Both the position numbers and the translations under genes were made by a program. Shown here one piece after another: positions 53 through 41,376 of a stretch of DNA of 41,539 bases; within the stretch, counting starts at the first letter, position 1; each line of letters begins with the position of its first letter. This DNA is from Methanobacteriaceae archaeon. GTDB lineage: Archaea; Methanobacteriota; Methanobacteria; Methanobacteriales; Methanobacteriaceae. Under the pieces are notes generated by a model, which saw only the letters and a list, made by a program, of their open reading frames with translations, was not told where the DNA came from and did no database searches. The stretch is taken from assembly GCA_020854915.1 (NCBI GenBank), contig JAHKLT010000021.1:1-41539 (forward strand), given 5' to 3'.

Positions 53-3000
53 TTAATAGGCATCATGATTAGCAAAGGTTATAAGAAAATTGAAGAAATT
101 TCCAACCTCGTAGAATTCACTTAAATCGGACACCTTGTTATTTAAATCTCCTGAAATTGGGTCAATATTTCCTGTTGATGTCTTAAATTTAAATTCCCTA
201 GTTGGTAAAGAATTATTATATTTATAAATTCCCGAACCATCAGTCCCCATGAAAGACAAAGTGAGTAATTGAGAATATCCTGGAGCATTATTTGATGTGA
301 AATTCAAAATAATCCATGAATCAGGATTAAAATTTAAAGAATTAATTTTAAACACTGGTTTGTCATTAGAACCCCACCAATTATTATTAAAATCATGATT
401 ATTTGCAGCAATACTTACTAAATCTCCTAAAATAATAGAATTAGTAACATTGATAAATAATACAGGATTTTCCAATGTTCCAAAAGTTGTGAATGATTCA
501 AAAACACAGTTTTCAAATAAAGAATTATTAGCCTTAGCTATAATATATTTTGTATTTACAAAAGTTGAATTATATACCTCATAATTTGCTGTTCCTGACC
601 CAGCAGTTAATGCAACTGTATTATATGATTGATATCCAGTAGTTTGATGAAGTATTTCATAACCATCAACAAAAACATTATCCAAATAGATATTACCTGT
701 AGATATTATAGACATAGTATATTGATAACCAGAATACATTTTACCAGTTACAATTATACTTGAATCTTTTACTGTAAGATTTCCATGACCTCCCAAAGAT
801 CCACCACTTCCAGTAAAACCATCTACCCTAAGACTATCTTCAATATGAGAGCTATAGAAATATAAATTGCCATCACTATGTATGGTTCCTGAATATTTTG
901 CAGCATTTGCAACAAATTTAGAATTCAAAATAGTCATTACACCCGCATTATATATTGCACCACCATAATTAGAATCACCATTATTTAAAAAATACGAATT
1001 AGATATAGTTACAGTACCATAACTTCTTAATGCACCACCATTATAACCATGATTTCCAATAAAATGAACATTATCAATTATAACAGTTACATTTTCAGGA
1101 ATATCAATTGGTGCAGGATAATCATAGTCAGATGGATAACTACCATAAGGATAACATCCATTAGTAAAAGTTAAATTAGCAATAGTAAGAATTTTAAGAC
1201 CAATAGCAACATCAAAGAAATAATCCATATTTGACCCATTAATAATAGTTTTTTTCGGCCCATCACCCGAAATAGTTATTTTGACAGAAGTAGGTATGAG
1301 TAGATTAACATTTCCCTCACCAAAATAGTTACCTTCTAAAATACGAATAGTAATATTATCTGAAATTTTATATGCCTCATATAATGCTTTTTTTATTGTT
1401 TTAAAAGGATTATTAAATGTTCCAATACCTGAAACATCGTTACCCTTACCGTCTGAAACAAAAATAGTAACATTATTTATTAAAGAACTTAAATCTACTG
1501 TAATATTTCCATAAATATATTTTGGGTTATTTCCAGTGTGGATATATTGGCCAGACAAAGTATATGTGCCATTTTCAAAACCAATATATTCTAAAGTCGC
1601 AACACCATTAATTAATGGTGATTCACCTAAATAAAAATCATCTAAATAAAATTTTATATTTCCTCCACCAATAAGCGCACCACTTTGATGTGAAATATTA
1701 GCACTTAAAGTATCCGCCAAATATACAATATTAAGATCATTAAACCTAATTAAAAGATCATCAATTTCACCATTAGTTTGACCAAGTGGACGAGATTTTA
1801 CTGATAAATAAATATCTTCCCCATTTTTTCCTGCAAAATTATTTTTAAATCTAGAATCACTAGATATTTTTGTAGTGAAAAACCCATCAACAAGTGATTC
1901 AAAAATATATATAGCACCACCATAAGTTAATGCTTTATTTTCTTCAAAACTAGAATTAATTATTTGCCCACCTCTAATACCTAATGCTCCACCTTCAATA
2001 GCAGAATTATTATAAAAAACAGCATTTATTATGGTAACATTATTATTAGATATAATTGCCCCATAACTTGTTAATGCAGAATTTCCTATAAAAATATCAT
2101 TTTTTGAAATAGACAATCCACCAATAGCACCACCTTGATTTGCAATATTATTTTTAAATGTGTTATTTATAGTTGTTAATTGACCACTTTGACGAGAAAT
2201 TGCACCACCATCACCATTAGTTCTTGAATTATTAATAAATTTTGAATTTTCAACAATTAAATTACCAGTACAATATATCCCCCCACCAACAATATTTTCA
2301 AAGTGAGAATTATTAACAATACCCATCATAGAAACATAACCTATATTATCCATAAAAATTGAATTATTAATTTCACAATTAGCAATTGCCCTTAACACAA
2401 ATCCATTTCCCAAATGAACATTATCATAGAAAATACAGTCAGAAACTATTGATTTTCCAGCAATATTTATTATATTGCGATTATAAGTAGGAAAATAACC
2501 TTTAGTAAAAGTTAAATTTATCATTTCAAAATTAGTATCAGAACCAATATTTAAAAACCAATCCGAATTATCACCATCAATTATTGTTTTATTATATGAC
2601 TCACCAATTAAAGTTAAATAACCTAATGAATTAGCAGAGATATTAGTATTACCTACACCAGAAAAAGTTCCCTCATTAATATGAATTACAGGGAAAAATG
2701 ATTTAGAAAATCCATATACAATTGCATGATTGATAGTTTTAAATGGTTTGCTTTGTGATCCATCACCTGTTCCATCGTTTCCAGTATTAGAATTTACCCA
2801 TAAATCTATAGGTGTTTGGTCAATATTAACAGTTAATTTTGCTGTAGTAATATTAGATTCTTTATAATTTTGTAAATTTGTACCATTAATTGTATAAATC
2901 CCATTATTTATAAGCATAGTAACAACAGCTGTTGCAGTACCATTTAATACTCTAGCATTTTTAAAAAAAGTATTATTATAATAAAATGAAATACCATTTG

Positions 3001-4087
3001 AAGTACCTGTTGGTCCTGTTATAAGATTACCCATATCATCAGTAACAGTAGCTTTAAGTGTGATATCTGTAGGGCTTGTTATAACTGCATCTTCATAAGT
3101 AATATTTAAGTTCATATATCCATTATTATAAATATGTCCATTGATTGGTGAAACTGAATTAATGAAAGTATTGTTTTTTACAAAATTATAACCACCAAGA
3201 TATATTATGGCATATGTTGTTCCAGAGTTAGTACAATTTATAAAAACATTATTTATAATATTACCAGTTTTTACAGAGTTTATATATAAGACTGCATCAT
3301 AACCATTTCCTGTAGAATTAATAAATTTATTATTTGAAACATTAGTGAAATTTGCACCATAAACAAAAGCTGCAGCACCATAAGTATTACTAGCTCTCAC
3401 ATAATTGTTAACAAATGTATTATTAATTAGTTCAGCATTTTGAATACTAGTAATGGAGTATATAGCTCCTCCACGAGTATTTGCAGAATTATTTTTAAAT
3501 ATAGAATCTTTAATAGTGTAATCACCATATCTTTGCCATATAGCTCCTCCAAAATTACTTGTTGCATAATTATTTTCAAATATACAGTTTTCTATTGTTA
3601 AAGCTCCTTCACTAACTATAGCCCCACCTTGTGTATTTTTTCCATTTATAAAACTTATATTTTTAAAAGTTACAATTGAATCTCGACCAATATTACTAAA
3701 AATTGCATTAGCATTATTTCCATCTAAAAATGTTTTGTTATAACCTGCACCTATAAAAGTTAAACTTCCATTATAATTTTTATGTGCTAAGTTAATTTCT
3801 AAATTATTATCTAAATTATTTTTATTAAAAGTTCCTTCACCTAAATAAATAACAGCATTATCAGATGAATTAGCCTTAGAAATACCATCTTTTATATTAT
3901 CATAAGGATTGTTTTTACCACCATCACCACTAGGATTAGTAGTAGTGTTTACATAAATTTCTTTATCATAATTTGCATTAGATGTAGTTTCAATAGCTAC
4001 ATCATCAATTTCTTCGTTTGCATTCAAATCATTGCCTATTTCTTCAGCACTGATTGAACTAATTGAAAATAACATTAATAAGAACAT
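53..4087 (-). CDS. Adhesin-like surface protein with parallel beta-helix modules
   Basis: Predicted secreted, cell-surface protein of 1,344 residues of the adhesin-like (right-handed beta-helix, polymorphic-repeat) type that is expanded in gut Methanobrevibacter. I see a hydrophobic leader ending near SSISAEE. Three modules follow, beginning near residues 45, 430 and 875; each opens with a GxG...P(F/Y)xxI motif (for example QSKPFKTINHAI) and continues as a ladder of N-rich rungs with repeated GGAI and FxNN turns. Ig-like beta segments (TDITLKATVTDD; TLSANISHQSG) separate the modules. The family is thought to mediate attachment to host or microbial partners; ligand unknown. The first ATG leaves no positively charged n-region, and no ATG, GTG or TTG lies in frame upstream before a stop; see the separate start-site entry at 4121. 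The stop at 53 probably reflects a frameshift, because plausible coding sequence continues in another frame to base 1. Family assignment is firm, boundaries are not. Confidence 0.85.
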   Translation of the reverse strand: MFLLMLFSISSISAEEIGNDLNANEEIDDVAIETTSNANYDKEIYVNTTTNPSGDGGKNNPYDNIKDGISKANSSDNAVIYLGEGTFNKNNLDNNLEINLAHKNYNGSLTFIGAGYNKTFLDGNNANAIFSNIGRDSIVTFKNISFINGKNTQGGAIVSEGALTIENCIFENNYATSNFGGAIWQRYGDYTIKDSIFKNNSANTRGGAIYSITSIQNAELINNTFVNNYVRASNTYGAAAFVYGANFTNVSNNKFINSTGNGYDAVLYINSVKTGNIINNVFINCTNSGTTYAIIYLGGYNFVKNNTFINSVSPINGHIYNNGYMNLNITYEDAVITSPTDITLKATVTDDMGNLITGPTGTSNGISFYYNNTFFKNARVLNGTATAVVTMLINNGIYTINGTNLQNYKESNITTAKLTVNIDQTPIDLWVNSNTGNDGTGDGSQSKPFKTINHAIVYGFSKSFFPVIHINEGTFSGVGNTNISANSLGYLTLIGESYNKTIIDGDNSDWFLNIGSDTNFEMINLTFTKGYFPTYNRNIINIAGKSIVSDCIFYDNVHLGNGFVLRAIANCEINNSIFMDNIGYVSMMGIVNNSHFENIVGGGIYCTGNLIVENSKFINNSRTNGDGGAISRQSGQLTTINNTFKNNIANQGGAIGGLSISKNDIFIGNSALTSYGAIISNNNVTIINAVFYNNSAIEGGALGIRGGQIINSSFEENKALTYGGAIYIFESLVDGFFTTKISSDSRFKNNFAGKNGEDIYLSVKSRPLGQTNGEIDDLLIRFNDLNIVYLADTLSANISHQSGALIGGGNIKFYLDDFYLGESPLINGVATLEYIGFENGTYTLSGQYIHTGNNPKYIYGNITVDLSSLINNVTIFVSDGKGNDVSGIGTFNNPFKTIKKALYEAYKISDNITIRILEGNYFGEGNVNLLIPTSVKITISGDGPKKTIINGSNMDYFFDVAIGLKILTIANLTFTNGCYPYGSYPSDYDYPAPIDIPENVTVIIDNVHFIGNHGYNGGALRSYGTVTISNSYFLNNGDSNYGGAIYNAGVMTILNSKFVANAAKYSGTIHSDGNLYFYSSHIEDSLRVDGFTGSGGSLGGHGNLTVKDSSIIVTGKMYSGYQYTMSIISTGNIYLDNVFVDGYEILHQTTGYQSYNTVALTAGSGTANYEVYNSTFVNTKYIIAKANNSLFENCVFESFTTFGTLENPVLFINVTNSIILGDLVSIAANNHDFNNNWWGSNDKPVFKINSLNFNPDSWIILNFTSNNAPGYSQLLTLSFMGTDGSGIYKYNNSLPTREFKFKTSTGNIDPISGDLNNKVSDLSEFYEVGNFFNFLITFANHDAY

Positions 4088-4401: not shown

Positions 4402-4418
4402 GGGCTTTATAGAAACCC
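4402..4418. repeat. Left terminal inverted repeat of the IS remnant
   Basis: The bases gggctttatagaaaccc are the inverted partner of 5564-5580 (14 of 17 matches). It lies just beyond the transposase stop codon at 4433, as expected for the 3' end of an IS read leftwards. Confidence 0.7.
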
Positions 4419-4432
4419 TTTTTTTATTGTAT

Positions 4433-5445
4433 TTATGTTGATCGATGTATGTTGTAAATTGTGTTTTTAAGTTTGGTTTCTTTATTTGATAGTTTGGTGC
4501 TTCTACTTTTATTTATTCCACTGAATGATCTTTTTATAACACTGAACACACTTTCAACATTGTTTCTTTTTCTGTATATTTTGTGTTGAAATATTGTTTG
4601 ACTTTTTAATATGTATTTTCCTTTTTTAGCTCTTTTTTTAAAATATATTGGTCAAATAAATTCATTTCTTTGTTTATGTATTTTATAGATCCTGTATCGT
4701 ATGCTCCATATGCTACGATATATTTTGGTTGATATTTGTTTGTTTTTTTAATAGAATTGATTGCAAATTGTGTAATCCTATTTTGATCCTTTTTGTGTTT
4801 GGTAATTTAGTATTAAACGAGATTTAACATCAATTACAATATGGTTTTTAATGTAGCTTTTTCTCTTTTTTTTTACGTATTATGGCATAATATTTATCAG
4901 CACGATTATTTGTGAATACATTTCCATTTAATTCTGTGATTTCTAGTTTTATTTTCTTTTCTATTAATATTAGTTGGTTTATTTTGTTTAAAAGTTCTGT
5001 TAGTATTCTGTTGAAGAATTTTTTTGTATTTTGGGGAAGTGTGATGCTCTTTGGATATGTAAAAATTTCTTTAATTAATCAGATAAATCCATTAAAAAAC
5101 TTATTTCACGATAAGTTAATTTTAAGTAAATTTTTAATGCTAAAATTGTGAATAAAACAGTTTGAGAGTATAAATGATTAGAAAAATAGTTGAAATATTT
5201 GTTTAAACTTATTTTTGCATATTTATTAGTGTAAATAATGAATTTTATAATGTTATTTTTATTTTCATTGTTTTTAGTTCGATTTTAAATTTTTTTAATG
5301 TAATTTTTTAGTAGTGTTTCAAAGTGAAAATCCAGAAGATTTAATTGTTTTGAAGTCAAATTATTAAATGAAGAATATGTATTTTTGCGTTTAATATTAG
5401 TATATATTATTTGTTTTAATATTTATATCTTTTTTCTTACTAATT
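4433..5445 (-). pseudogene. Frame-broken DDE transposase of the IS remnant
   Basis: Reading the minus strand with several frameshifts and stops recovers a nearly complete transposase. The N-terminal part reads TSKQLNLLDFHFETLLKNY, then TILALKIYLKLTYREISFLM, the helical region typical of IS4/IS5-like enzymes. The first catalytic Asp is in HIVIDVKSRLI, the second in IVAYGAYDTGSIKY, and the Glu is in RKRNNVESVFSVIKRSFSG near the C-terminus, so all three DDE residues are still readable. Frame breaks fall near 5130-5280, between the GYREK-like region and the first Asp (about 4855), and just after the first Asp segment (about 4800). No plausible start codon is left. The product cannot be functional. 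The rightward ORF at 4912-5151 is only its antisense shadow. Confidence 0.8.
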
Positions 5446-5563
5446 TTAAAATTAATAATATTAAATGAATAATTAAAAAATATAAGGAAGATTAAAAGAA
5501 TTATTTCAATGAATAACTACTTATATTTCAAAAAAAATCAAATATTAAATTCTTAAAAAATTA

Positions 5564-5580
5564 GAGTTTCTACAAAGCCA
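5564..5580. repeat. Right terminal inverted repeat of the IS remnant
   Basis: The bases gagtttctacaaagcca pair with the left end at 4402-4418. The repeat is followed directly by TTAAT, which is also the left flank of the neighbouring MITE-like element. Confidence 0.7.
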
Positions 5581-5585
5581 TTAAT

Positions 5586-5692
5586 GAGTGTCGGACAAAA
5601 ATACCTTTTTCAAGAAAGATGTTTCTTCAAATCTCAAAGAAAGGATTAATCTATCGTTTTAAGAAAATGATTTTGAATTTTGGCCGACTCTC
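5586..5692. mobile_element. 107-bp MITE-like element with TTAAT target duplication
   Basis: The left end gagtgtcggacaaaa (5586-5600) and the right end ttttggccgactctc (5678-5692) are inverted repeats matching at 13 of 15 positions. TTAAT occurs as an exact direct repeat immediately outside both ends (5581-5585 and 5693-5697). The interior is non-coding. This layout (TIR, short non-coding core, 5-bp duplication) is that of a miniature inverted-repeat transposable element. Its autonomous parent is not in the window. Confidence 0.6.
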
Positions 5693-5830
5693 TTAATTTA
5701 AAAAAAGATTATTGTTTTACGTATAAATATTTAAATCATTATTAAAAAATTTTAAACCATAATATTTATTTTATTTAAAAAGAAAAGTTTAAAAAGATAT
5801 ATAATAATTATTTTAAAATGGATTGTTCTA

Positions 5831-40807: not shown

Positions 40808-41376
40808 TATATCACTACTATCATATGTTTTTTATTGGTTTAGTTTAAATTTTCACCATAATTTATAAAAAACCTCTAATTCTCAAATACAAAGAGTATC
40901 TATTATTTAAGAATTAAATAAAATTATCTCTTGAAAAATTAATTTTCACCAAAACCCAATTAAACTATTAAAAAGAAATTTATTAAAATAAAAATTATAT
41001 ATCTCATATAATATTAATTATGTAATTATTAATTTGTTAAATCGATAGATATTAAATATAAATCCTTATAAATATTTTTAATCATTGAACCACTACCAAA
41101 TAGTTATTTTTTATTTTAATATTTTAGATTTTTGTTATAGTTAAATTAAATTGTAATTTTTATATATAGTTGATTACCTAATATTTTTTAATTAATTTAA
41201 TATTTATATATAAATAAAACATGTATTTATATGAAAAAGTTTGGTAACACACTATAATATTAATTGATAAAAATTTTTAACCCAATTATTTTTATATAAA
41301 TTCTGTTTATATAATCATGATTTTTATTTTTTATTAATATTAAAATTAATTCTAAATATCAAACTAAACCAAGCAC
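40808..41376. other. 570-bp AT-rich non-coding region
   Basis: I see no gene, RNA or convincing structure between the acetyltransferase and the transposon end. Several long A/T runs could hold the acetyltransferase promoter near 40830-40900. Confidence 0.45.

What the first reader, a model, noticed from the sequence alone, without database searches (positions are those of the whole stretch)
5581..5697. 107-bp MITE-like element with 5-bp TTAAT duplication abutting the IS end
Two 15-bp ends (13/15) and an exact TTAAT duplication make a complete non-autonomous transposon. Its left duplication coincides with the last bases of the IS, so either it inserted exactly at the IS end or both elements share a target preference. 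Such elements appear not to be well described in Methanobrevibacter, as far as I know.
Basis: partly seen in the sequence, partly recalled or inferred. Interest (0 to 1): 0.6.

Follow-up and report, generated by a model that had tools for sequence, protein, structure and literature searches.

The report
107-bp IS1182-driven MITE family
The 107-bp sequence is a real miniature transposon that cannot move by itself: near-identical copies sit at 17 places in this archaeon's genome, distant cousins occur across most genera of its methanogen family, and its ends match those of IS1182-type jumping genes that probably move it.

Summary
Window 5586-5692 is exactly 107 bp with 13/15 terminal repeats and a TTAAT duplication on each side. 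The genome carries 17 copies (mean pairwise identity 95%). Of 16 independent insertions, 13 have exact 5-bp duplications (shuffle mean 0.94, maximum 7 in 20,000). It is a genuine MITE. One detail is wrong: the neighbouring IS (IS5-like) ends at 5579, so TTAAT lies outside it.

The wider picture is new. A sequence profile finds about 250 relatives in 25 of 139 Methanobacteriaceae genomes and 12 of 17 genera, nearly all 105-109 bp. Their interiors are homologous to one another but not to IS interiors. Two end types exist: xCGCCAAAA, mostly with 4-bp duplications as in 1.78-kb IS1182 elements, and GGMCAAAA with 5-bp duplications as in a second, 2.1-kb IS1182 clade. MITEs and IS share a target (T-rich, duplication, A-rich). 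Copies in M. cuticularis, M. curvatus and a termite-gut MAG are up to 94-96% identical although host synonymous sites are near saturation.

No intact IS1182 partner was found in this genome, only remnants. New member of a known kind (IS1182 MITEs are known in Methanosarcina), but an unusually old, length-constrained lineage.

The parts
5586..5692 (+). MITE, 107 bp, no open reading frame; one of 17 close copies in the genome
5581..5585 (.). left target-site duplication TTAAT, one base outside the neighbouring IS end
5693..5697 (.). right target-site duplication TTAAT
5586..5600 (+). left terminal inverted repeat GAGTGTCGGACAAAA
5678..5692 (-). right terminal inverted repeat GAGAGTCGGCCAAAA (read on the - strand)
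5601..5677 (+). interior, homologous to interiors of other MITE families across the family Methanobacteriaceae; carries AAGAAA-GATG-TTTCTT and AAAxAAAGGATT blocks
4403..5579 (.). neighbouring decayed IS (ends GGCTTTRTAGAAACYC, IS5-like transposase remnant on the - strand); a bystander, not the parent

Best explanation
The element is a miniature inverted-repeat transposable element. It encodes nothing. An IS1182-family DDE transposase supplied in trans binds the two 15-bp ends, moves the element, and inserts it into intergenic DNA where a T-rich stretch meets an A-rich one, with a 5-bp staggered cut that is repaired into a 5-bp duplication. It belongs to one old lineage of 105-109-bp MITEs in Methanobacteriaceae. 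Members fall into two end types: xCGCCAAAA, mostly with 4-bp duplications and sharing ends with the 1.78-kb IS1182 clade, and GGMCAAAA, with 5-bp duplications, most like the 2.1-kb IS1182 clade. Shown: MITE structure, transposition by duplicated target sites, relatedness of interiors, matching ends and matching duplication lengths on IS1182 elements. Inferred: that an IS1182 transposase moves this copy, which IS1182 clade does so, and the chemistry.
For: 17 copies in the genome with distinct 5-bp duplications, all in gaps between ORFs. Full-length IS1182 elements in relatives carry the same kind of ends; their transposases match NF033551 transpos_IS1182 best over nearly the whole length, at 246-250 bits (cut-off 270), plus Pfam DDE_Tnp_1_6 and DUF772. 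Several genomes hold both A-type IS and A-type MITEs with the same ends, e.g. G033, G061, G139, G030. Duplication length follows end type: MITEs 14 vs 4 (4 bp: 5 bp, A type) against 1 vs 21 (B type), Fisher p = 1.7e-6; A-type IS 17 vs 0. Three B-type IS have 5-bp duplications, CACTT, ACAGT and TGTTT. The A and B transposases form two groups, each supported 100/100. MITEs and IS share the T-rich/A-rich target: 47 sites with against 4 opposite for MITEs (p = 2.4e-10) and 20 against 3 for IS (p = 5e-4).
Against: No intact IS1182 transposase was found in the window's genome (about 90% complete). There are only remnants at C38, C41 and C11, whose right end GAGTCTTGGCCAAAT matches the MITE ends at 11/15. 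Full-length B-type IS were found only in genus g3, not in the hosts of B-type MITEs. End sequence alone does not tell clade A from B for this copy: left end 13/15 to either. The IS transposases score just below the NCBI IS1182 equivalog cut-off.
Confidence: 0.87

Rival explanations
1. A conserved intergenic RNA gene or regulatory element spread by recombination rather than transposition.
For: The interior is conserved between genera, all copies are intergenic, and the sequence folds modestly better than shuffles as DNA (z -2.2).
Against: Exact 5-bp duplications at 13 of 16 independent sites, no Rfam match, RNA fold z only -1.5, no fixed gene context, and ends shared with full-length IS1182 elements.
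Confidence: 0.04
2. The MITE is moved by a transposase of another family (for example the IS5-like neighbour), not by IS1182.
For: The IS5-like IS lies one base away, and no intact IS1182 was found in this genome.
Against: The IS5-like ends are GGCTTTGTAGAAACCC, unrelated to the MITE ends. IS1182 ends, duplication lengths and target preference match the MITEs.
Confidence: 0.08
3. Each MITE family arose separately as an internal deletion of its local IS1182, so the shared length of about 107 bp reflects a size optimum only, not common ancestry.
For: Lengths cluster at 105-109 bp in both end types, close to a whole number of DNA turns.
Against: Interiors of different families align far above shuffles, including A-type against B-type (z 5-6.6), while the same interiors do not match IS interiors (z at most 3.1).
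Confidence: 0.12

Closest known systems
MITEs associated with ISMac2 (IS1182 family) in Methanosarcina acetivorans (Kamoun et al. 2013, PMC3852290, Table 4)
   Same: Archaeal, IS1182-associated, only the ends resemble the IS, 4-bp duplication for one of the two, 7-14 copies.
   Different: 160-169 bp with 25-26-bp repeats, in a different class of methanogens; here 107 bp with 15-bp repeats, two end types with 4- or 5-bp duplications, and one interior shared across many genera.
IS1182-family insertion sequences (NCBIfam NF033551; Pfam DDE_Tnp_1_6 + DUF772)
   Same: Terminal repeats, target preference and duplication length match the MITEs.
   Different: Autonomous, 1.78 or 2.1 kb, with a transposase of about 500 aa; interiors unrelated to those of the MITEs.
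19 'MITE-like' archaeal repeats without an identified partner IS (same paper, PMC3852290)
   Same: Repeats with inverted ends and sometimes direct repeats.
   Different: Here candidate partner IS elements with matching ends are identified in relatives, though no intact one in the window's genome.

Membership tests
MITE (non-autonomous DDE transposon derivative) | Short, no coding capacity | tested here: met
   107 bp; the ORF list shows none of 50 aa or more inside
MITE (non-autonomous DDE transposon derivative) | Terminal inverted repeats | tested here: met
   13/15 in this copy and in the consensus of the 17 close copies
MITE (non-autonomous DDE transposon derivative) | Flanking duplications of constant length, different at each site | tested here: met
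   13 of 16 independent sites, exactly 5 bp
MITE (non-autonomous DDE transposon derivative) | Multiple dispersed copies | tested here: met
   17 close copies on 17 contigs, 26 family members in the genome by profile
MITE (non-autonomous DDE transposon derivative) | Empty orthologous sites | not tested
   The only same-genus genome (G001) has no copies by DNA search or profile, but its match to the flanking gene starts at residue 33, so the site itself was not compared
IS1182-mobilised MITE | Ends match those of an IS1182 element | tested here: met
   13/15 of the left end to both IS1182 clades in relatives; identical ends in A-type IS and MITEs within one genome
IS1182-mobilised MITE | Same duplication length and target as the IS | tested here: met
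   5 bp as in three B-type IS; shared T-rich/A-rich target
IS1182-mobilised MITE | Intact partner transposase in the same genome (usual, not strictly required) | tested here: inconclusive
   Only remnants at C38, C41 and C11; the assembly is 75 contigs, about 90% complete, and C38 and C11 are cut by contig ends
IS1182-mobilised MITE | Transposition by an IS1182 transposase in an assay | not testable with these tools
   needs the bench

The most novel reading that the evidence does not exclude
One ancient MITE backbone of about 107 bp has persisted across the genera of Methanobacteriaceae by changing its ends to suit different IS1182 transposase clades, switching its duplication between 4 and 5 bp as it did so, moving between genera in insect guts, and keeping its interior and length under selection because they matter for assembling the transposition complex or for a host factor.
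Probability: 0.35. Interest if true: 0.6.

Novelty: new member of a known kind. Interest (0 to 1): 0.42.

Why it matters
Prokaryotic MITEs are usually seen as genome-specific deletion products of a local IS. Here one lineage of nearly fixed length spans at least 12 genera, with interiors related to each other and not to the IS. Two end types with two duplication lengths give a natural experiment on how a MITE changes transposase, and the cross-genus near-identity makes it a possible marker of gene flow between gut methanogens.

Tried and rejected
The idea that the MITE inserted into the last bases of the IS was rejected on IS boundaries. IS-end/MITE clustering (4 near, 4 far) was rejected as weak because both are confined to intergenic DNA. 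Non-archaeal hits of the end-pair pattern (Parcubacteria, Brevibacillus, Clostridiales, Victivallis, Alphaproteobacteria) look like chance: unrelated interiors and mostly no GAG...CTC ends. A viral or plasmid route was tested and not found: no match in viral contigs, phages or plasmids. The interior was compared with IS ends to see if it is an IS deletion product: no similarity beyond chance. An RNA-gene reading was tested and not supported. The orthologous empty site at this locus could not be examined in G001. A paralogous empty site was looked for among fetched loci and not found.

Full report
THE OBSERVATION. Window 5586-5692 is 107 bp, flanked on both sides by TTAAT, with ends GAGTGTCGGACAAAA and GAGAGTCGGCCAAAA that match at 13 of 15 positions. 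No ORF of 50 aa or more lies in it. Searching the window's own genome (1.66 Mb, 75 contigs, about 90% complete) gives 17 close copies and one decayed relative. Flank inspection shows 14 of 17 copies with an exact 5-bp duplication. One pair (C72/C61) is a segmental duplication of the same insertion (97% identity over 742 bp). Of 16 independent insertions, 13 have an exact 5-bp duplication, against a mean of 0.94 and a maximum of 7 in 20,000 shuffles; none has a duplication of 6 bp or more. Copies differ from their consensus at 1-8 positions, mean pairwise identity 95%, and all lie between ORFs. This is a transposon family that has spread fairly recently.

THE NEIGHBOURING IS. In the window it ends at 5579. 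Base 5580 is a spacer and the duplication follows. The MITE therefore sits next to the IS, not in its last bases, and the IS is not its parent. Both elements live in AT-rich intergenic DNA, which is enough to explain the contact.

RELATIVES. End patterns were then found across the family Methanobacteriaceae. Regions around them contained two things: full-length insertion sequences with these ends, and more 104-109-bp elements. G025 (2,937,203 bp, which I take from memory to be M. ruminantium M1) has six 1789-bp IS with ends GAGGGTCCGCCAAAA/GGGTGTCCGCCAAAA, a 502-aa transposase and 4-bp duplications. Its transposase matches the IS1182 model best (250 bits, cut-off 270) and Pfam DDE_Tnp_1_6/DUF772. 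A second IS1182 clade, in genus g3, has ends GAGTATTGGACAAAA or similar, is about 2.1 kb long, and has 5-bp duplications (CACTT, ACAGT, TGTTT). The two clades are each supported 100/100 in the transposase tree.

ENDS, DUPLICATION LENGTH AND TARGET AGREE. With elements sorted by the bases at end positions 8-10, A-type MITEs have 4-bp duplications in 14 and 5-bp in 4; B-type MITEs (GG at 8-9) have 5-bp in 21 and 4-bp in 1 (that one, L022, reads as 5-bp when the element is taken as 106 bp); Fisher p = 1.7e-6. A-type IS: 17 with 4 bp, none with 5. Elements are not fully independent, since some are copies within one genome, so the p-value is indicative. MITEs and IS also share a target: T-rich DNA before and A-rich DNA after the duplication at 47 MITE sites against 4 opposite, and 20 IS sites against 3. 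These three agreements are the case that IS1182 transposases move these MITEs.

ONE LINEAGE. Interiors (without the 15-bp ends) of the different MITE families align far above shuffled sequences, within a type (z up to 27.7) and between A and B types (z 5-6.6), but not with the sequence 16-140 bp from the ends of the IS (z at most 3.1). A 107-position sequence profile finds about 250 members in 25 of 139 family genomes and 12 of 17 genera at E up to 1e-4; the number is a lower bound because at most 28 candidates per genome were scored. Lengths among 56 end-defined elements: 107 bp in 39, 105-109 bp in 54. Pattern searches that allowed about 92-122 bp returned only 105-109-bp members in this group. 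So length is constrained, and 107 bp is close to ten DNA turns; that this matters for the transposition complex is inference.

MOVEMENT BETWEEN GENERA. MITEs of M. cuticularis, M. curvatus and the termite-gut MAG Lab288P3bin120 are up to 94-96% identical, interiors included, whereas fourfold-degenerate sites of a shared gene (the gene beside the window's element) are only 54% identical between M. cuticularis and M. curvatus (one gene only). Either the MITEs moved between genera or the interior is under strong constraint. No copies were found in viral contigs, phages or plasmids, so a carrier was not identified.

THE WINDOW'S GENOME. Its only IS1182 sequences with similar ends are remnants: C41 (transposase end at 550-1023), C38 (8459-9245) and the edge of C11, with right end GAGTCTTGGCCAAAT (11/15 to the MITE ends). 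C38 and C11 are cut by contig ends and 97% alike over 142 bp, so an unassembled full copy is possible. The direct parent is therefore not shown. The genome also has older members of the same lineage (C53, C6, C74, C67:8645).

LITERATURE. IS1182-associated MITEs are known in Methanosarcina acetivorans (160 and 169 bp, partner ISMac2; PMC3852290). No paper found in the held library describes MITEs in Methanobrevibacter; subscription literature and ISfinder could not be searched.

VERDICT. A real MITE, correctly spotted, of a known kind. The parts that go beyond the ordinary are the age and nearly fixed length of the lineage, the two end types with two duplication lengths, and the cross-genus near-identity.

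Noticed in passing
window 41165-41256: A second dispersed repeat, 92 bp, ends TATAGTTGATTACC / TATAGTGTGTTACC, 92-99% identical full copies at several other places in the fetched parts of this genome plus partial ones. TA at both ends suggests an IS630/Tc1-type MITE (inference).
   Followed up: partly
window 4403-5579: Decayed IS5-like insertion sequence with ends GGCTTTRTAGAAACYC; four long copies in the genome, similar ends near MITEs in other methanogen genomes.
   Followed up: partly
window 53-4087: 1344-aa ORF on the - strand with a repetitive composition, adhesin-like by eye.
   Followed up: no
L018 1-740 and L023 1556-2296: A 740-bp stretch carrying one MITE copy is present on two contigs at 97% identity: a segmental duplication or strain variation in the assembly.
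   Followed up: no
L293 (genome G020): This genome of genus g4 gave 28 profile matches out of 28 scored, so the true copy number of this MITE lineage there is probably higher.
   Followed up: no
L218 3202-3312: Parcubacteria contig with a 111-bp near-palindrome beginning CAGCGTCGGACAAAAATATTG; interior unrelated to the MITEs by eye.
   Followed up: no
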